From Ignavibacteriales bacterium (GTDB lineage: Bacteria > Bacteroidota > Ignavibacteria > Ignavibacteriales > Ignavibacteriaceae): a DNA stretch of 64,000 nucleotides. The notes below the pieces were generated by a model, which saw only the letters and a program-made list of their open reading frames with translations, ran no database searches and had not been told where the DNA came from. The position numbers were made by a program, and so were the translations under genes. Position 1 is the first letter of the stretch. The number at the start of each line of letters is the position of its first letter. The stretch covers positions 1,963,448 to 2,027,447 of the forward strand of contig CP054182.1 of the NCBI GenBank assembly GCA_015709675.1, in the 5' to 3' direction. This document shows positions 9,813 to 19,136 of the stretch, piece after piece.

Positions 9813-9960
9813 ACAATTTTTCCGGTTGTTGGTGAAAAGTAAGAATGCAAAATGCTAAAAACAGGGGAAATATAACAGACCATAACGCTCTAATTTTCCG
9901 GAGGGAAAAAGGAAGGAAGTTGAGGATTGAAAGTTGAAAGTTGAGAATTACCTACGGAGG
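9813..9960. other. Gene-free upstream region of purM
   Basis: No gene is seen. The part next to purM must contain its promoter; a weak TAnnTTTG-like candidate on the minus strand is too degenerate to call. At about 9,918-9,950 there is a short run of near-identical words (GATTGAAAGTTGAAAGTTGAG), the same style of degenerate word repeat that recurs at other gene-cluster edges in this window. Confidence 0.5.
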
Positions 9961-10860
9961 AAGAAACTCACCCCCCAACCAGGTGAGGAAAGAGGGGGCT
10001 TCCGGAAGATTGTGGAATGTTCTGATTCCGGAGGAAGAAACTCACCCCCCAACCCCCTCTCTTTCCAAAAATTTTGCTTCCGTTTATTCTCCGCGTCTCT
10101 TCAGATTTACAATTCGAAACCTATTCCGCTCTGATGGAAAAAGAGGGGGCTTCCGGAAGATTGTAGATTGTACTGATTCCAAGCTGCGAAAGAGACTCAC
10201 CCCCCAACCCCCTCTCTTTCCTAAAATTTTGCTTCCGTTTATGATCCTGGTCTCTGCAGATTTAATATTCCGAATCTATTCTGCTCTGAAGGAAAAAGAG
10301 GGGGCTTCCGGAAGATTGTTGATTGTACTGATTCCGGAGGAAGAAACTCACCCCCCAACCCCCTCTCTTTCCAAAAATTTTGCTTCCGTTTATTAACCGG
10401 GTCTGTGGGAATTTAACATTCCGACTCTATTCTGCTCTGATGGAAAAAGAGGGGGCTTCCGGAAGATTGTAGATTGTACTGATTCCAAGCTGCGAAAGAG
10501 ACTCACCTTCCGACACGTCGGAACAAGCCCAATTCCCCCTCTCTTTCCTAAAATTTAGCTTCCGATTATTCTCCGGGTCTGTGGGAATTTAACATTCCGA
10601 ATCTATTCTGCTCTGAAGGAAAAAGAGGGGGCTTCCGGAAGATTGTAGATTGTACTGATTCCGGAGGAATCACATGCTGGTAGAAAATGAGACCGATACA
10701 CAACCCGCTCCCTTATTCTGCGTCCGAGGAAAAACTCACCTTCCAACAAGGCTAGATAAGAGGGGGCTTCCGGAAGATTGTAGATTGTACTGATTCCGGA
10801 GGAAGAAACTCACCTTCCAACTAAGCGAGGAAAAAAGGGGGCTTACGGAAAATTGTTCAT
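9961..10860 (+). repeat. Block of seven dispersed-repeat units (GAGGGGGCTTCCGGAAG family)
   Basis: Seven copies of the word GAGGGGGCTTCCGGAAGATT (the last one degenerate) begin near 9,991, 10,142, 10,294, 10,447, 10,622, 10,759 and 10,831. Most are followed by a CTCACC(CCCCAACCCC) segment ending in CTCTCTTTCC and about 75-90 bases of less conserved linker. CCCCCTCTCTTTCC and the following GGAAAAAGAGGGGG are complementary, so each unit can fold as a long stem with a large loop. One unit (about 10,495-10,550) has an inserted palindrome TTCCGACACGTCGGAA. Open frames running through this block are by-products of the repeats. The same family occurs in inverted orientation at 18.3-18.8 kb. Confidence 0.9.
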
Positions 10861-10903
10861 TGTACATTGTAAATTGTACATTGCTTTTATTCCGGCGGAC
10901 GCC

Positions 10904-11905: not shown

Positions 11906-12310
11906 AACCCTTTGAGATGAAAAAAATGAACCGCTAAAATTAAGCCAATAACATTCTTAAGATAGGAAAAATTCCGGGCAGATGAAAGGCGGAGGAAATT
12001 GAGTGCTGAGTATGGAAAATGAGATTAATTAATGAAGAATGAAAAATGAAGAATGAAGAATGAAAAAATGGTCCGAAGCTTTTACGCTCTTATGGCTGCC
12101 ATATGGCACTATCGGGGAGGATCGTGATAATAAAAGGCCCGGGGCTGTCAGCGGGATTCATTTGCAGCGGGGGCAGTTTTTGCTCATATTCAGGGGGAAC
12201 TCAGTCTTATGAAAGATCCGGCTTTGTGTAAGGAGCAGTTACAAATGCGGACTTCCCGGAAGGGGAATTAACCCCTCTGACCGGTATTCAGACTTTGAAT
12301 TCATAATTAT
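11906..12310. other. Gene-free stretch upstream of the polysaccharide deacetylase
   Basis: No supported gene. About 12,028-12,068 is a degenerate word repeat (GAATGAAAAATGAAGAATG). The minus-strand promoter of the deacetylase should lie near 11,930-11,950, where a TAATTTTA box resembles the Bacteroidetes -7 element with one mismatch. The stretch from about 12,070 to 12,300 has normal genome composition but no frame of useful length; it may be a gene remnant, which I cannot show. Confidence 0.4.
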
Positions 12311-12388
12311 AAAAAAACCCCTCTCCGCTGGGTACTGCAGAGAGGGGAACATTTTGTTCAACCCGATTCACTGGTGAAGAATCTGGTT
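12311..12388 (-). ncRNA. Candidate small RNA with own promoter and intrinsic terminator
   Basis: Read on the minus strand, a predicted transcript of about 78 nt starts near 12,388. A first hairpin spans 12,358-12,390: TCAACC and GATTC arms pair with GAATC and GGTTGA around a nine-base loop. A second spans 12,318-12,347 (CCCCTCTCTGC / GCGGAGAGGGG, 11 pairs with one wobble, eight-base loop) and is followed directly by seven U residues (12,311-12,317). The next minus-strand gene begins 400 bases further on, so it is more like a free small RNA than a leader, although a terminator for the restriction operon cannot be excluded. It matches no known family that I recognise. Confidence 0.55.
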
Positions 12389-12391
12389 GAT

Positions 12392-12422
12392 CAAAATTAT
12401 AAAATTATGAGAAATTTGTCAA
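12392..12422 (-). promoter_or_regulatory. Promoter of the candidate small RNA
   Basis: On the minus strand TTGACA (12,417-12,422) is followed after exactly 17 bases by TAATTTTG (12,392-12,399), which fits the Bacteroidetes -7 consensus TAnnTTTG. It is the best-formed promoter in the window. It lies between the stop of the DUF2357 nuclease gene and the paired hairpins, about 4 bases from the first hairpin. Confidence 0.6.
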
Positions 12423-12486
12423 GGGGGGGGATTAGTTAAGATTAATAAGGATTGTGGGTATGTTTTTGCCTTCCCTAAAATTCGAA

Positions 12487-14838
12487 CTAATACTTTTTTA
12501 CCTGTGCCTTCATCAGTTCAGCAAAACTTACCGCAAAAGGGTAACCGGACTGCCTCTTTGGCCGGTAGTTCTCAAGCTTTCTGATATCCCACTCAATTCC
12601 GATGGTAACCGGCTGAACAGGATTACCCGTCAGTGTATATACAAGGTACAGTTCCTGAGATGGTTCTTTCGGATATTCCGTCTTTTTTAGATCCTGTTTA
12701 GTATAAATTTCCGGTCCTTCAGCGGACAAGCGGTAAAGATATCCTGTCCTTAATTGCCCCGGGCCGTGGAGCAAAAGATAGCGGGCGGATGCTTCGGCTG
12801 ATTTTATCCGAAGCAAACCTGCTCCGGTAAGTCTTGCGTTATACTTCCCCTTTTCAACAATCCAGTTGTAATGAGCCACACCTTTGCAATAGCCAATGAG
12901 CACGTATTCATCTTCAGGCACAGGTGCCCGTTTTTTGTCAATCAACTCAGGGTAATAGTGGACATCACGGTCGCTTACCGTTTCAGCGGGTTCATCCTTA
13001 TATATATTCCACGCACTGTAGGAAGACCGTTCTCTCTGTGATGTCCTGTCGGCGAAATTATTCACCACGGCTTTTATAAACTTTGCCAGCTCACCGGTTC
13101 CGTCTTTATCACCGGCAGGTTTGATGTTAAAAGCACCCAGCCCGGGAATAATTTCATGAAATCCCTGTAAAGTTTTCGGGCTGTCTCCGGGATAGAGTAT
13201 ATATGCTCCTGCTGTTCTCCGGATTGCATCTTTATAGGCATGCATCTTAAGCAAGTCTTCATGTTTATACTTTCTCTGGTTTTCCTCCTTCTTTGTTATC
13301 TCTTTGGTGAATTCAGTGTCGCCGTCAGAGTTAGGAGATTTTTTTTCCATCCCCATCTTTTCGTTCATATCCTCTAAAAGAGATACGAAATTGTCAATTT
13401 TATATTTTGCATCAAAATGTATATGAAGCATTAATTCCATCTCCTCTGCAATTTCAGCACTCATTCCGTGTGGCCATAAACTTAACGTAAAATCAGGATT
13501 CAAGTTTACTGTCCAACTCCCCTCCTTAAAATGCTTTTCCTCATGTTGAAATTTTCTATTATATGAGAATTGCACGTTAAGATTTCTGCCGGCGTTCTTA
13601 TAATAACCTTGCAAATTGAAATTTTTGCCTTTTTTAAGATTTATATCGAGTTTATTAGGTGAATACTCAAATAGTAAATCTATACTGCTATTGGGAATAC
13701 TAAATATTTCACAAATAATATTGAGCAATTTGAAGAATATCCAATATTCATATAATACGGATAAATTTTTCTTCCCAGCATCATAAACATCTGGTCCCCC
13801 GCTCCATACAAGTTTTGCAGCTACGAAAAACAAGATCCATGCTCTCAGAATTTCTCGGTATCCATCTTTCTTTTGTAAAGTCGGGCTGTTTAGCGGAAGA
13901 AAACTTGGAGCCGATATCTCACGAAATATGGGATTATTTAGCCATTCAGAAATAATGTCTGTAGCTTTGATCACTTCTCTTTCAAATACACTATCCCCCT
14001 TCGAGTATTTACTTATGCTTGTTACAAAATCAAGAAATGTCTGAAGAACATGCTTTACGAATCTGTTTTCAGGAGAATCAACAGTCTCTGTATTCTTGAA
14101 GGTACTTATTTTCAAGGGCAAACTGGGGATTCTGTCGGCCAGATAATGTTCCTCTGGAACTTTTATTCTATTTCTCACTATTGAAATCTGACGGATTCCA
14201 TGTCTTCCGAATTTCGTTGTGGAGCGGACATCTTTTAATATCTCAATCTCTTTCCATCTGGTCACTGGAGAATATATGATTCTATGTACAGCTTCGCTGA
14301 AATCCCTTGATCTTATCGTCGAATAAATAAATGCAAATTTCTGATAATTTGTTTTAGCATCATTTTCTAATCTTGGTTCAATATTCTGTTTAACAGAACT
14401 TGAGTGCTGGAATATAAGGTCACTGCAAATGTTTGCTATATCTTCAAGCATTTTTCTGTAATCTTCGCGGTAGCCTGTTTTAACAGAACAAACCTCTATT
14501 TCTGCTTTGCCACAATCACCTCCGCTTTGATCTAAAACTTCTAGCACAAGCTTGCCAACGTTTGTATTAGGCCTTATTCTGCCTCTGTGCGGCTCAATTT
14601 TGGAAACAACAATTATACCTGTCTCTCTAAGCCTAAGTTGCTCTTTACTCAGTTTATATTCATAAAAATTGCCCTCGTATATTTGATATGGGGACTCACC
14701 GTTTTCCCCGGCGTCATTTTTATAACACAGAATATCATTTTCTGTTTCAGCTCTTATTAAAATGGTTCCAACATCTTTGCCATCTTTAGTAATTGGAACC
14801 ACTAACTCTTTAGTTTTCAGCGTAGCTTGTGAATCCAT
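12487..14838 (-). CDS. DUF2357 / McrC-like PD-(D/E)XK restriction nuclease subunit
   Basis: A 783-residue protein, the nuclease partner of the adjacent McrB-like ATPase. The DUF2357-type N-terminal half includes VLYEYW with Glu364. The nuclease core shows Asp449 in LNPDF and Asp476-Ala-Lys478 in HFDAKYK, the PD...DxK metal site, then a helix with KMHAYKDAI (531-539) corresponding to the QxxxY-type motif. LlaJI.R2 and BsuMI YdjA belong to similar McrC-like partners. Residues after about 500 form a second region of unrecognised fold and are encoded by clearly GC-richer DNA than the first part. Its start lies 29 bases inside the McrB-like gene. Confidence 0.85.
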   Translation of the reverse strand: MDSQATLKTKELVVPITKDGKDVGTILIRAETENDILCYKNDAGENGESPYQIYEGNFYEYKLSKEQLRLRETGIIVVSKIEPHRGRIRPNTNVGKLVLEVLDQSGGDCGKAEIEVCSVKTGYREDYRKMLEDIANICSDLIFQHSSSVKQNIEPRLENDAKTNYQKFAFIYSTIRSRDFSEAVHRIIYSPVTRWKEIEILKDVRSTTKFGRHGIRQISIVRNRIKVPEEHYLADRIPSLPLKISTFKNTETVDSPENRFVKHVLQTFLDFVTSISKYSKGDSVFEREVIKATDIISEWLNNPIFREISAPSFLPLNSPTLQKKDGYREILRAWILFFVAAKLVWSGGPDVYDAGKKNLSVLYEYWIFFKLLNIICEIFSIPNSSIDLLFEYSPNKLDINLKKGKNFNLQGYYKNAGRNLNVQFSYNRKFQHEEKHFKEGSWTVNLNPDFTLSLWPHGMSAEIAEEMELMLHIHFDAKYKIDNFVSLLEDMNEKMGMEKKSPNSDGDTEFTKEITKKEENQRKYKHEDLLKMHAYKDAIRRTAGAYILYPGDSPKTLQGFHEIIPGLGAFNIKPAGDKDGTGELAKFIKAVVNNFADRTSQRERSSYSAWNIYKDEPAETVSDRDVHYYPELIDKKRAPVPEDEYVLIGYCKGVAHYNWIVEKGKYNARLTGAGLLRIKSAEASARYLLLHGPGQLRTGYLYRLSAEGPEIYTKQDLKKTEYPKEPSQELYLVYTLTGNPVQPVTIGIEWDIRKLENYRPKRQSGYPFAVSFAELMKAQVKKY

Positions 14839-16528
14839 TGTGCAAAAGGTTATGGTACATGCGAACTATTTTTTCCAGAGTTACTGGATATCGTACATCA
14901 TTGATATTATCATTAGTTTCAAGATCTAATTTTGCTTCTTTATTAAGAAAATTTTCAGGCGATTTGTTGTCTTTCATGCAAAATTCTGCCATTTTCTTTA
15001 GCGGATCTTTTAGTTTTCTTTGTGAACCATGAACTTTTGGTAGTAATTTCTGCATAATTGCATAATCAAATATTTTCTCATCTGACCATTCGTTGTTCAA
15101 CATTTTAGCAAAAGCTGTAAATCTTTTTATTTCAGTGGCAGTGCGATATCCAAACTCAGCGCCCACCTTCTTAAGTTCATCAAAGAAAAGCACCAACTCA
15201 CCTATTATCGTCGTGTTTCCATATTTAAGATCCTTTTTTTGTGCAAGATCCAGAAAATCGCCAGCCATCCCTGCTTCAAGTCCTTCAATCCCATCATCGT
15301 TAATAATTGTATTGTTGCTAAGAAATTTGCTCATATCGGATTTGCTAACTCTGAATTCAATTACATTTGCCCTGTCAAGAACTTTTGGACTAAACATATA
15401 TGTTGTTTCATCTATATTCACCGTACCAATAATAAATAGATTTTTTGGGAATCTTATAAATGGTGCAATATCATCTTTGCCTTCAGTATCGTCATGCAAA
15501 TAAATTTTATCACCACTTTCCATTGCACTTAAGAAGTCCGCAAAATATCTTTCTACATGACTCAAATTCATCTCGTCCAATATTAAAAAAAATGGCTTGT
15601 CTTGGTTCTTCGCTTTATTAGCTTCAATTATTAATTGAAGTACGCCACTTTCCGGTTTTATATATCTGTTTTTTTCTATGGAATCCGGAAATCCAAGCAT
15701 GGGTTCTCTACTCGTCCAATCTGCACCAACCGGAACCAATTTATATTGTTCGCTTGAGGAACAAAACAACTTTACTATACTATGTGCGAGTTTGGTTTTT
15801 CCTGATCCCGACAATCCAGTTAGAATTATAAATGGCTTGGTTAGTAAAGCTGCAATAAAACGAGTTATAATCTCTGGAGAATAAATTAAGTTTGTTGCTG
15901 TTATACTTTCAATAATCTTTGGTATACTTAATGGTGTTTTTTTAATATTTCCCTGAAGCTTATTTTCAACAAGATTATTCCATTCAATTTTCCTGATTGC
16001 ACTCGAATCATACTCTGTGTGTGTATCCGATACAACAATCGCTGAAAAATGTAATTCCTCCTGGTTCCTTACGTTAATTTCAAAAGCGAACCAACAACCA
16101 TTAGGACAACCCAATGCTTCTCCCATTTTCCTGTACACCTCTGCATTGTTCAACGCTTTCTCTTCAGTAGCATACTCTGCATAGGGAGGATAAGAAATTA
16201 TTATTCTCCCGTTATGACTTTCAGTGTGTTCTTTTACAAGTAAAAATATTAAGGACTCTTCTTTTAACTCTATTCCATTAACAAAAACTTTACTAAAAAT
16301 AGAACAATATAATAACTCCCTATTTTCACTCATCTCTGTCGCCTTCAAAGAATCAGCAGGTTTGATGTTATATGTCATCCCATAAATAACATCTTTCAAT
16401 CCTTCTTTGTCTGTATCCAGTTTGTAACCATTTTTTTTACTTTGACCAACGGACGTTCCCCATGCGGCTGTTGCAGTAGCATCTTTAATACTTGAATTAA
16501 AGAATAATGACGTGTTATCTATCTTCAT
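14810..16528 (-). CDS. McrB-like AAA+ (GTPase-type) restriction subunit
   Basis: A 572-residue motor subunit. Residues 1-200 are an unrecognised N-terminal domain that probably reads DNA. Residues 205-570 are the AAA+ module, with Walker A GLSGSGKT at 238-245, Walker B FFLILDEMN at 313-321 and the McrB-clade sensor segment GTVNIDETTYMFSPKVLDRA at 368-387. McrB-type motors assemble as hexamers and drive a McrC-type nuclease. Overlaps on both sides (14 bases with the methyltransferase, 29 with the nuclease) argue for one translationally coupled operon. The gene is strongly AT-rich compared with the rest of the window. Confidence 0.9.
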   Translation of the reverse strand: MKIDNTSLFFNSSIKDATATAAWGTSVGQSKKNGYKLDTDKEGLKDVIYGMTYNIKPADSLKATEMSENRELLYCSIFSKVFVNGIELKEESLIFLLVKEHTESHNGRIIISYPPYAEYATEEKALNNAEVYRKMGEALGCPNGCWFAFEINVRNQEELHFSAIVVSDTHTEYDSSAIRKIEWNNLVENKLQGNIKKTPLSIPKIIESITATNLIYSPEIITRFIAALLTKPFIILTGLSGSGKTKLAHSIVKLFCSSSEQYKLVPVGADWTSREPMLGFPDSIEKNRYIKPESGVLQLIIEANKAKNQDKPFFLILDEMNLSHVERYFADFLSAMESGDKIYLHDDTEGKDDIAPFIRFPKNLFIIGTVNIDETTYMFSPKVLDRANVIEFRVSKSDMSKFLSNNTIINDDGIEGLEAGMAGDFLDLAQKKDLKYGNTTIIGELVLFFDELKKVGAEFGYRTATEIKRFTAFAKMLNNEWSDEKIFDYAIMQKLLPKVHGSQRKLKDPLKKMAEFCMKDNKSPENFLNKEAKLDLETNDNINDVRYPVTLEKIVRMYHNLLHNGFTSYAEN

Positions 16529-17498
16529 ATATTTGCTTGAATATGTGACTAAAAAGCTTGCCGACCAAGTTCACATCCCATCCGTTTCCTGCACATCTGC
16601 CTAATTTTGTGTAACTTGGGTTTTCAGGATATCTAATTTCTCTTTCTTTATTATTAATTTTGAATCCCATTAATCGGAAATGTTCATCCAGCGAAAGCTT
16701 TCTTACTCTTTCTTTTCCCTCATGAATGGGTTCCACTATTCTAACTACATTGTGCTCTGGTGGTGTTACCGTCATGCATAAGCCATCTAATCTTATCTTT
16801 CGATTATAGTAATCATAACATAAAGGTTCATTTACATCAAACAAATCAATGTCATGCAGATGTTTAATTCTTGCAATTTGTGCTTCACTTCTATAAAGGT
16901 CGATTTCAACCCTTTTGTCTAAAAAATCTTTTAATCTATGTTTTAATGGTATTTTCGGTGGTGCTAATTTAAAGTTAGCTGGGAGTTTTCCCATGAACCC
17001 AAATATCCATAATCGCTCTCTGTTTTGCGGTACACCATAATCTTTCGAATTCAATAGCGCATATTCAACATCATATCCAATTTTCTCAAGTTCAGTAATT
17101 ATCTTTAGAAAGGTTGGTTTTAGCCTTCCCATTGTCAATCCCTTTACATTTTCCAATAAGATATATTTTGGCTTTTTACTGCTACAAATTCGTATTATAT
17201 CTTCAAATAGAGTTCCTCTTATGTCTAATTCACCAAGTCTTTTACCAACTGTAGAAAATGGCTGACATGGAAACCCGCCTGTAAATAAATCAAAATTAGG
17301 TAGATTTGACGGTTTAACTCTTGTTATATCGCCATAGTTTTGAATCTCTGGAAAATTTGCTTCATATAATCGTATAGCGTCTTCATCAATTTCGGAATAA
17401 CCAACCACTTTATGGCGTATACCAGACTTCTTTAGTCCAAATGATGCTCCACCATAACCCGCAAAAGCTTCAAATACTCTAATAATTTTTTCAGACAT
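16515..17498 (-). CDS. DNA (cytosine-5) methyltransferase
   Basis: A 327-residue m5C methyltransferase. Motif I is FEAFAGYGGASFG (9-21), motif IV GGFPCQPFS with the catalytic Cys78, motif VI LLENVKG (114-120), motif VIII QNRERLW (158-164) and motif X GNGWDVNLV near the C terminus. The spacer between VIII and IX, which holds the target recognition domain, is about 110 residues; the target cannot be read from it. As part of this operon it should protect host DNA from the McrBC-like nuclease. AT-rich codon use and the short overlap with vsr indicate that the whole cassette moved together. Confidence 0.95.
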   Translation of the reverse strand: MSEKIIRVFEAFAGYGGASFGLKKSGIRHKVVGYSEIDEDAIRLYEANFPEIQNYGDITRVKPSNLPNFDLFTGGFPCQPFSTVGKRLGELDIRGTLFEDIIRICSSKKPKYILLENVKGLTMGRLKPTFLKIITELEKIGYDVEYALLNSKDYGVPQNRERLWIFGFMGKLPANFKLAPPKIPLKHRLKDFLDKRVEIDLYRSEAQIARIKHLHDIDLFDVNEPLCYDYYNRKIRLDGLCMTVTPPEHNVVRIVEPIHEGKERVRKLSLDEHFRLMGFKINNKEREIRYPENPSYTKLGRCAGNGWDVNLVGKLFSHIFKQIYEDR

Positions 17499-17922
17499 TT
17501 TTTATTTCGTTCATCTTAATCAAGGAGATAACCTTTTTTAGTTTTTTTTGAGTTTTATTTTTCAGTTCACATTCCCAAATCACAATTACCTTATAATCCA
17601 ACTTTCCAAGTTCATATTTTTTCTTTTTATCACGTTTTATAGTTAGAGTTATTTTGTTATTCCAATAATCTATTTTGGTTTTTGGAAAGCTGAAGTATTT
17701 ACAATTCTTATGCCCGTGCCAAAAACATCCGTTTACAAAAATAACAGTTTTATATTTTTTCAGTACAATATCTGGTTTACCGGGAAGCGAGGCAACATTC
17801 ACCCTATAGCGGAACCCCTGCGAAAAAAGGTACTTCCTCACGATGAGCTCCGGCTTGGAATCCCGGCTTTTTATCCGGCTCATATTATAACTGCGGGTTG
17901 CTTTGTCGTGAACGTCTGCCAC
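17491..17922 (-). CDS. vsr: Very short patch repair endonuclease (Vsr)
   Basis: A 143-residue mismatch endonuclease that nicks next to T:G mismatches arising from deamination of 5-methylcytosine, so limiting mutation caused by the neighbouring methyltransferase. It has the family N terminus DVHDKATRSYNMSRIKSRDSKPE, the catalytic Asp51 in LPGKPDIV, and the zinc and active-site segment VNGCFWHGHKNC (64-75). The start is GTG. It is the first gene of the operon, overlapping the methyltransferase start by eight bases. The C terminus is Lys-rich. Confidence 0.95.
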   Translation of the reverse strand: MADVHDKATRSYNMSRIKSRDSKPELIVRKYLFSQGFRYRVNVASLPGKPDIVLKKYKTVIFVNGCFWHGHKNCKYFSFPKTKIDYWNNKITLTIKRDKKKKYELGKLDYKVIVIWECELKNKTQKKLKKVISLIKMNEIKNV

Positions 17923-17970
17923 GAGAGTATAAATATTCCGTTACTTAATAGATGGTTCAGTCAAATATCG

Positions 17971-17978
17971 CAAAAATA
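17971..17978 (-). promoter_or_regulatory. Candidate -7 box for the restriction-modification operon
   Basis: Minus-strand TATTTTTG, an exact match to TAnnTTTG, lies 48 bases upstream of the vsr GTG. No convincing -33 TTTG element is seen at the right distance, so the call is tentative. Confidence 0.4.
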
Positions 17979-18168
17979 TTTTTACGAAATTACCTAAAGT
18001 TTCGGAATTCTCCATTTTTGGTTGTCAATTCTCAACTTTCAATTCTCAATTTATTTTATCCTTTTCATCCTTAAATCGTGTTCCGGTACTTCATGTCATC
18101 CCTCCGGGATTTTTGGGGTTATGATTATAATCAGGGTGTTATTAATATGTCACCCCGACGAGTCGGGG

Positions 18169-18330
18169 TTCAGGAAACGACTATGGGGGGATTTTCTTTT
18201 GCTGCCAATCTGTGATTCCTCCGGAATCAGTTCAACTTTCCGGCTCCCTTCCCTTTTTTGGGATTGAAAACTCCGACTTGCCGGAGGAAGGGCTGGGGCC
18301 TGCCCCGACGAAGTCGGGGATGAGGTTTTT
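18169..18330 (+). repeat. Direct repeat, copy 1 (about 162 bp)
   Basis: This stretch, starting TTCAGGAAACGACTAT and ending in GTCGGGGATGAGG, recurs at 18,975-19,136 with an offset of exactly 806 bases, no gaps and only a handful of substitutions. It contains the palindrome CCCCGACGAAGTCGGGG. It is not coding in any consistent way. Confidence 0.9.
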
Positions 18331-18974
18331 CCTCCGGAATCAAATCAATGTACAATGAACAATGTACAATTTTCCGGAAGCCCCCTCTTTTTCCTTCAGG
18401 GCTGATTAGATGCAAAGTGATATATTCCCACATACATGGACTAAAAATTGAAGCTAAATCTTAGGAAAGAGAGGGGGTTGGGGGGTGAGTTTCTTCCTCG
18501 GGTATAAGATAAGGCAAAGGGAAACAAAGGTCGTCATTTTCTACTGGGAGCAGAAAAGGTGAGCGGGTTGTGCATCGGTCATCGTTTTCTGCCAGATCAA
18601 TTTACAATGTACAATGAACAATGTACAATGTACAATTTTCCGGAAGTCCCCTCTTTTTCCTTCAGGGTTGACATGGATGCAAAATGATAAATCCCCACAT
18701 ATCCGTACTAAAAACGGAAGCCATATTTTAGGAAAGAGAGGGGGAATTGGGCTTGTTCCGACGTGTCGGAAGGTGAGTTTCTTCCTCCGGAATCAGAACA
18801 ATGTACAATTTATAATGAACAATGTACGATTTCCGGCTTCTTTTCACGGACAGGTCGGGGGTTTGAGGAGATTGTTGTGTATCAGTATTTTATTAACGGG
18901 TCATCCCGACTCGTCGGGAGTTCAGGGGGAGGTCTTGAAGCGTTTTATTATTAACAGGCCACCCCCTCCGGGGG

Positions 18975-19136
18975 TTCAGGAAACGACTATTGGTGGATTT
19001 TCTTTTGCTGCCAATTTGTGATTCCTTCGGAATCAGTTCAACTTTCCGGCTCCCTTCTCTTTTTTGGGATTGAAAACTCCGACTTGCCGGAGGAAGGGCT
19101 GGGGCCTGCCCCGACGAAGTCGGGGATGAGGTTTTC
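18975..19136 (+). repeat. Direct repeat, copy 2 (about 162 bp), next to the hrcA promoter
   Basis: Second copy of the element at 18,169. It ends only 56 bases before the hrcA start codon and about 26 bases before the hrcA -7 box, so it forms the immediate upstream boundary of the heat-shock operon. A long in-frame extension of hrcA reads through it; that extension is not part of the protein. Confidence 0.9.

What the first reader, a model, noticed from the sequence alone, without database searches (positions are those of the whole stretch)
12487..17922. BsuMI/LlaJI-like restriction cassette: McrBC-type nuclease tied to a C5 methyltransferase and Vsr
Four overlapping genes encode Vsr, an m5C methyltransferase, a McrB-like motor and a DUF2357 PD-(D/E)XK nuclease. 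Classical McrBC attacks methylated DNA, so pairing a McrBC-type machine with a resident m5C methyltransferase means either that specificity has been reversed (cut unmethylated sites, as known for LlaJI and BsuMI) or that the methylation pattern is invisible to the reader domain. Only one methyltransferase is present, whereas LlaJI has two, which suggests a palindromic site. Vsr would correct the mutagenic cost.
Basis: partly seen in the sequence, partly recalled or inferred. Interest (0 to 1): 0.6.

Follow-up and report, generated by a model that had tools for sequence, protein, structure and literature searches.

The report
McrBC-engine restriction-modification cassette with Vsr
Four overlapping bacterial genes form a mobile anti-phage restriction cassette in which a motor-driven nuclease, usually used to cut methylated DNA, is paired with its own DNA-methylating enzyme and so probably cuts DNA that lacks the mark; the kind is already known, but its DNA-reading part has almost no recognisable relatives.

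Summary
At 12487-17922 (- strand), vsr, an m5C methyltransferase (MTase), an McrB-like AAA+ motor and a DUF2357/PD-DxK nuclease overlap by 8, 14 and 29 bp, with catalytic motifs intact. The cassette is 34-37% GC in a ~47% GC genome and is absent from 59 relatives. It is a horizontally acquired insert.

It is best read as a Type II-like restriction-modification system with an McrBC-type nuclease that cuts unmethylated sites. The closest characterised match is PcaI of Pectobacterium (one MTase, CCNGG). LlaJI and BsuMI are more distant.

New evidence comes from 86 related loci. Motor and nuclease are conserved, but the McrB N-terminal reader is swapped. Readers in loci without an MTase are mostly MrcB_N, the methylcytosine reader. 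Loci with a co-oriented MTase carry other readers (Fisher p=6e-13; 9 of 10 phylogenetically independent pairs agree). MTase association changed at least 10 times on the motor tree.

The window's own reader matches no Pfam or PDB entry. Its one detected relative lies directly downstream of an MTase 53% identical to the window's. The nuclease C-terminus models as a YTH/EVE-like fold.

The recognition site is unresolved; a genome motif-avoidance test was negative. Restriction of unmethylated DNA is inferred, not shown.

The parts
17491..17922 (-). vsr: very-short-patch mismatch endonuclease, GTG start (MADVHDKATRS...)
   Evidence: Pfam PF03852 E=2.7e-36, TIGR00632 above cut-off; PDB 1cw0 E=1.1e-33 with the catalytic E, D, H, H positions conserved
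16515..17498 (-). m5C DNA methyltransferase, 327 aa, with PCQ, ENV and QNRER motifs
   Evidence: PF00145 E=3.9e-64; TIGR00675 above cut-off; M.HhaI 1fjx E=1.5e-31
16704..16952 (-). putative target-recognition region of the MTase (residues 183-265)
   Evidence: No match among 72,556 plasmids; one match (55%) among phage records, L130; also present in phage-contig MTase L135, 54% identical over residues 6-325 of the MTase
14810..16528 (-). McrB-like AAA+ GTPase-type motor subunit, 572 aa
   Evidence: E. coli McrB by sequence; AlphaFold motor mostly at pLDDT 70-95, Foldseek to McrB chains
15944..16528 (-). N-terminal module of the McrB-like subunit (residues 1-195), putative sequence-specific DNA reader
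   Evidence: No Pfam or PDB hit; unrelated to every other N-module tested in 86 loci by blastp and to representative groups by hhalign; one relative, L130 5715-6065, 34% over 121 columns, directly downstream of the closest MTase
15791..15817 (-). Walker A motif GLSGSGKTK
   Evidence: Invariant G, K and T positions in the motor alignments
15410..15418 (-). [quoted passage not shown]
   Evidence: N371 and D373 invariant in 26 motors; NxD branch described in PMC11090510
12487..14838 (-). McrC-like nuclease subunit, 783 aa
   Evidence: DUF2357 and PDDEXK_7; AlphaFold model residues 119-592 align with McrC, Z 8.3
13837..14583 (-). DUF2357 domain (residues 86-334)
   Evidence: Pfam E=3.3e-33
13183..13755 (-). 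PD-(D/E)XK nuclease domain (residues 362-552), catalytic D449, D476, K478
   Evidence: Pfam E=4.5e-27; residues invariant in 20 homologs
12490..12921 (-). C-terminal domain (residues 640-783) with a predicted YTH/EVE/ASCH (PUA-superfamily) fold
   Evidence: VIA-align: YTHDF2 7ywb Z 7.2, 120 aligned, rmsd 3.6; VcaM4I EVE 6yex Z 7.0; ASCH 5y6c Z 6.5; conserved in all homologs aligned; no Pfam hit
11950..18130 (.). approximate extent of the horizontally acquired insert between the polysaccharide-deacetylase gene and the intergenic repeats before hrcA
   Evidence: GC 34-37% against ~47%; the same-genus genome G001 has the deacetylase and the same repeats about 0.8 kb apart, no cassette; purM and hrcA directly adjacent in G002, G007, G013, G019

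Best explanation
A mobile Type II-like restriction-modification cassette with an McrBC-type nuclease, of the same kind as PcaI and LlaJI. The MTase methylates a cytosine in its recognition site (site unknown). The N-terminal module of the McrB-like subunit binds the same site when it is unmethylated. The AAA+ motor assembles with the McrC-like subunit, translocates on DNA using NTP, and the PD-DxK nuclease cuts foreign DNA. Methylated host DNA is not engaged. Vsr repairs the T:G mismatches left when the 5-methylcytosine deaminates. Shown here: gene content, intact motifs, operon layout, horizontal acquisition, modular reader swapping, and association of non-MrcB_N readers with co-oriented MTases.
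For: Overlapping four-gene operon with intact catalytic motifs. Motor and nuclease are conserved (51-56% and 39-45% identity) across the Bacteroidota relatives, while the N-module is unrelated in nearly all of them. Across 86 loci with an N-module of at least 50 aa, 1 of 61 in the main N-module cluster has a co-oriented m5C MTase just upstream, against 19 of 25 outside it, Fisher p=6e-13. Pfam MrcB_N is found in 41 of 64 scanned loci without a co-oriented MTase and 1 of 20 with one. Phylogeny-corrected: 9 of 10 independent pairs agree, sign-test p about 0.02. MTase association changes 17 times on the motor tree, at least 10 forced by supported branches, so the switch is recurrent. N-modules co-vary with MTases beyond motor similarity: partial Mantel r=0.20, 56 of 3000 permutations as high. 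The only detected relative of the window's N-module overlaps the end of an MTase 53% identical to the window's over its whole length; the next best phage or plasmid-record MTase hits are about 36%. Precedents: PcaI restricts unmethylated CCNGG sites with one MTase (PMC8989522); R1.LlaJI is the sole specificity subunit and binds LlaJI sites (PMC1459862).
Against: No activity, methylome or recognition site is known. The window's reader has no resolved fold (pLDDT under 50). Its single relative is on a 6.2-kb unverified contig that ends about 90 bp after the ORF, so fusion to a motor there is not seen. Some pairs break the co-variation (L074/L092: MTase 75% identical, readers unrelated), and one of the 20 MTase loci has an MrcB_N reader: L125, the only MTase locus inside the main N-module cluster. 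No motif is depleted specifically in this genome. Purified LlaJI subunits showed neither cleavage nor GTPase activity in vitro (PMC1459862).
Confidence: 0.8

Rival explanations
1. The McrBC pair is a Type IV (modification-dependent) system that reads a different modification (for example hydroxymethylcytosine, N4mC or 6mA in phage DNA) through its N-module or the nuclease's YTH/EVE-like domain; the MTase and Vsr form a separate or merely co-transcribed function whose mark the reader does not see.
For: Most members of the same motor/nuclease clade lack a co-oriented MTase and many carry the methylcytosine reader MrcB_N. The nuclease C-terminus models as a YTH/EVE/ASCH-like fold, folds often used to sense modified bases.
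Against: The window's reader has no detectable similarity to MrcB_N or EVE. Non-MrcB_N readers go with co-oriented MTases. The genes overlap. PcaI and LlaJI with the same anatomy restrict unmethylated DNA.
Confidence: 0.12
2. The MTase, with Vsr, acts as an addiction or regulatory module, and the McrBC pair punishes loss or competing methylation (host killing, as described for E. coli McrBC in PMC2614495) rather than serving mainly as anti-phage defence.
For: Restriction-modification systems can be addictive, and the cassette is horizontally acquired.
Against: This is not exclusive of the best explanation and there is no specific evidence for it here. Sporadic distribution (absent from the 58 other relatives searched) gives no sign of strong retention.
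Confidence: 0.04
3. The cassette is a decaying or inactive insertion.
For: Foreign composition and a single occurrence in the family; several relatives have split or broken nuclease frames (L029, L066, L081).
Against: All four frames are open, overlapping and carry intact catalytic residues.
Confidence: 0.04

Closest known systems
PcaI R-M system of Pectobacterium carotovorum RC5297 (PMC8989522)
   [quoted passage not shown] described as mobile
   Different: No Vsr is described in the passages read; its site is CCNGG, whereas the site here is unknown. Sequences were not compared because the PcaI proteins were not at hand
LlaJI of Lactococcus plasmid pNP40 (PMC1459862)
   Same: m5C methylation with an McrB-like specificity subunit and an McrC-like PD-(D/E)XK subunit; restricts unmethylated DNA
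   Different: LlaJI has two MTases for an asymmetric site (GACGC/GCGTC) and its motif III resembles that of McrB (with threonine); the window has one MTase, the NxD motif and Vsr
BsuMI of Bacillus subtilis (compared in PMC1459862)
   Same: m5C R-M with an McrB-like component; a PDB model of YdjA-YdiS (9a5m) is a weak Foldseek hit of the nuclease (E=0.012)
   Different: BsuMI has three R ORFs and a short McrB homolog (343 aa)
E. coli McrBC (Type IV)
   Same: AAA+ motor and a DUF2357/PD-DxK nuclease; the model aligns with McrC (Z 8.3)
   Different: The window lacks the MrcB_N methylcytosine reader, carries its own MTase and Vsr, and has the NxD motif and a C-terminal YTH/EVE-like domain
Methyltransferase-associated NxD branch of the McrBC census (PMC11090510)
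   Same: NxD GTPase motif, MTase association and extra domains on the McrC homolog
   Different: The paper defers that branch to a later publication; no HEPN or helicase genes of CoCoNuTs were seen beside the cassette

Membership tests
Type II-like R-M with McrBC-type nuclease (PcaI/LlaJI kind) | Resident m5C MTase with intact motifs in the same operon | tested here: met
Type II-like R-M with McrBC-type nuclease (PcaI/LlaJI kind) | McrB-like AAA+ motor with Walker A/B and Nx(x)D motif | tested here: met
   NxD variant
Type II-like R-M with McrBC-type nuclease (PcaI/LlaJI kind) | McrC-like subunit with intact PD-(D/E)XK | tested here: met
Type II-like R-M with McrBC-type nuclease (PcaI/LlaJI kind) | N-terminal specificity domain that is not the methylcytosine reader | tested here: met
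   No MrcB_N hit; hhalign probability under 1%. This is by sequence only; the fold itself is unresolved
Type II-like R-M with McrBC-type nuclease (PcaI/LlaJI kind) | MTase and nuclease recognise the same site | tested here: inconclusive
   Co-variation across the clade and L130 support it; exceptions exist
Type II-like R-M with McrBC-type nuclease (PcaI/LlaJI kind) | Restricts unmethylated DNA, blocked by its MTase | not testable with these tools
   Needs bench work
LlaJI in the strict sense | Two m5C MTases for an asymmetric site | tested here: not met
   One MTase in the operon
BsuMI | Three R ORFs with a short (about 343 aa) McrB homolog | tested here: not met
   Two R ORFs of 572 and 783 aa; definition from PMC1459862
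Type IV McrBC (E. coli type) | MrcB_N/DUF3578 methylcytosine reader at the McrB N-terminus | tested here: not met
   By sequence profile
Type IV McrBC (E. coli type) | Cleaves methylated DNA only | not testable with these tools
   Needs bench work
CoCoNuT | NxD GTPase motif | tested here: met
   NID
CoCoNuT | Extensive coiled-coils, tandem nucleases or RNA-targeting partners | tested here: inconclusive
   Flanking genes are a polysaccharide deacetylase and hrcA-grpE-dnaJ-like genes (assigned by inspection); coiled-coils were not computed
Vsr | Vsr family match with conserved catalytic E, D, H, H | tested here: met

The most novel reading that the evidence does not exclude
A dual-sensing restriction machine. 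A novel sequence-reading module on the motor directs cutting of unmethylated cognate sites, while a YTH/EVE-like domain on the nuclease, shared with Type IV-like relatives, also senses base modifications. One complex would then attack both unmethylated DNA and phage DNA hidden by modified bases.
Probability: 0.12. Interest if true: 0.7.

Novelty: new member of a known kind. Interest (0 to 1): 0.45.

Why it matters
The cassette and its clade suggest that one McrBC-type engine has repeatedly crossed between 'attack methylated DNA' and 'attack unmethylated DNA' (at least 10 supported changes of MTase association on the motor tree), with a swap of the N-terminal reader and gain or loss of an MTase. 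That makes a long-standing question testable in one family: how a Type IV enzyme becomes a Type II-like one, or the reverse.

Tried and rejected
Recognition site from genome motif avoidance: GGWCC, GGNCC and AGSCT looked depleted in 858 kb of the window's genome against family relatives. The same-genus genome G001, which lacks the cassette, shows the same or stronger depletion (GGWCC 0.52, AGSCT 0.06), so the signal is not the cassette's. The genome also has two other m5C MTases.

More reader relatives: none in plasmids or viral contigs. A weak hit in G335 (E=0.0012) was not reproduced in a direct tblastn and lies among unrelated household genes, so it was set aside as chance. MTases nearly as close as L130 in Bacteroidota genomes: none in a 395-genome sample at E<=1e-50.

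The pNP40 (LlaJI) record was not held under the accession tried; the PcaI record was not looked up. Sequence search of the nuclease against the PDB found nothing; only the structural comparison linked it to McrC and to YTH/EVE.

Full report
1. What is there. Four genes on the minus strand, 17922 down to 12487, overlap by 8, 14 and 29 bp: vsr, an m5C MTase, an McrB-like motor and a DUF2357/PD-(D/E)XK nuclease. Domain assignments are strong. The motor is recognised through E. coli McrB and a PADLOC candidate-defence model. Catalytic residues are intact in all four proteins. The motor carries the shortened NxD form of the McrB GTPase signature (NID), which the McrBC census describes as a branch in which many members are associated with MTases and carry extra McrC domains (PMC11090510).

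2. Where it came from. The cassette has 34-37% GC over most of its length in a ~47% GC neighbourhood. The nuclease has no match in the 58 other relatives searched. In four family members purM and hrcA are directly adjacent (gene names assigned from general knowledge). In the same-genus genome G001 the deacetylase gene and the intergenic repeats before hrcA are present about 0.8 kb apart, without the cassette; the contig breaks inside the repeat. The cassette is therefore most likely a recent insert of about 6 kb.

3. The wider clade. A phylum sample gave ten relatives in which motor (51-56%) and nuclease (39-45% over the whole length) are conserved, but the first ~200 residues of the motor subunit are unrelated to the window's. 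A genome-collection scan added 80 loci, a few of them the same genomes as the first ten. After removing recognised duplicates, 86 loci had an N-module of at least 50 aa. Of these, 61 form one single-linkage N-module cluster, in which only one has a co-oriented MTase just upstream; outside the cluster 19 of 25 do (Fisher p=6e-13). Pfam identifies MrcB_N, the methylcytosine reader of E. coli McrB, in 41 of the 64 scanned loci without a co-oriented MTase, and in 1 of 20 with one. On a tree of motors, MTase association changes 17 times, at least 10 of them forced by supported branches (quick tree, many branches weak). Using only independent pairs, 9 of 10 keep the rule (median p=0.02). The same engine has thus repeatedly been fitted either with a methyl-reader and no MTase (Type IV-like) or with another reader and an MTase (Type II-like).

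4. Within the 20 MTase loci, groups such as L035/L094/L126/L036 and L064/L080/L092 share both MTase and reader, while many pairs with equal motor similarity share neither. The partial Mantel correlation controlling for motor identity is 0.20 (56 of 3000 permutations as high). Exceptions exist (L074/L092, L093/L116). For the window itself, the only relative of its reader found is in L130 (MT837792, an unverified faecal 'phage' scaffold). There it overlaps the end of an MTase 53% identical to the window's over its whole length, against about 36% for the next hits in the plasmid and phage records.

5. Anatomy of the nuclease. An AlphaFold model (mean pLDDT 67.5) aligns with McrC over residues 119-592 (Z 8.3 to 6hz4_M and 6ut7_G). 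Its C-terminus, residues 640-783, aligns with YTH (Z 7.2, 120 residues, rmsd 3.6), the EVE domain of VcaM4I (Z 7.0) and ASCH domains (Z 6.5). Such Z values are middling, but nearly all rows for this region belong to one superfamily and cover most of the domain. The domain is conserved in all homologs aligned, including those without an MTase, so it cannot be the part that tells Type II-like from Type IV-like members. Whether it keeps a modified-base pocket was not tested.

6. Mechanism. The best-supported account is a PcaI-like system: the MTase marks a site, the N-module of the motor subunit recognises that site when unmarked, and the McrBC engine translocates and cuts. The experimental precedents are PcaI (one MTase, CCNGG, restriction of unmethylated plasmids and phage defence; PMC8989522) and LlaJI (R1 is the specificity subunit; PMC1459862). 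Vsr presumably repairs deaminated 5-methylcytosine. Vsr occurs in 12 of 87 loci of the clade; where it differs between independent pairs it almost always goes with the MTase, but the numbers are too small for significance.

7. What could not be settled. The recognition site is unknown. Motif avoidance gave a tempting GGWCC/GGNCC signal, but the same-genus genome without the cassette shows it too, so it is rejected. No methylome or activity data exist here.

8. Placement. The cassette is a new member of a known kind. What is less expected is the extent of switching in its clade, a reader with essentially no detected relatives, and a YTH/EVE-like domain on the nuclease of a Type II-like system.

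Noticed in passing
L301 5896-8807 (window's genome, C1 about 649.9-652.8 kb): A second vsr-m5C MTase-nuclease cassette in the same genome, with an MvaI/BcnI-family nuclease (PF15515 E=9.2e-47).
   Followed up: partly
L302 6267-8355 (window's genome, C1 about 88-90 kb): A third m5C MTase next to a 300-aa protein without Pfam hit and a UvrD-like helicase; a possible further restriction system.
   Followed up: no
L135 5995-6999; L136 6001-6954: Viral contigs (185 kb and 107 kb) carry lone MTases 53-54% identical to the window's, including the target-recognition region in L135; possibly protection against such cassettes.
   Followed up: partly
L303-L322, L232, L233 (G001, same genus): Very strong avoidance of AGSCT (15 observed, 233 expected) and GTATAC (2 of 40) in the sampled 196 kb; may point to other restriction systems in this genus.
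   Followed up: no
L125 6120-9104: Exception to the rule: the one locus of the main (methyl-reader) N-module cluster that has a co-oriented m5C MTase, 46 bp upstream (motif PCQDFT).
   Followed up: no
L113, L116, L093, L091: Two-MTase (LlaJI-like) versions inside the same motor clade.
   Followed up: partly
L032 and L034: An m5C MTase operon (with Vsr in L032) divergent from the McrB-like gene, followed by further large genes; adjacent defence systems of unclear relation.
   Followed up: no
9955-10880 and 18165-19135: Families of imperfect intergenic repeats flank the insert region; 18165-18329 and 18971-19135 are 97% identical, and the listed hrcA start (19018) falls inside a repeat, so the real start is probably further downstream.
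   Followed up: partly
L130 1-4695: Upstream of the L130 MTase lie an HTH protein, a 662-aa ATPase-like protein and an HNH-like protein (by inspection); the contig may be bacterial rather than phage.
   Followed up: no
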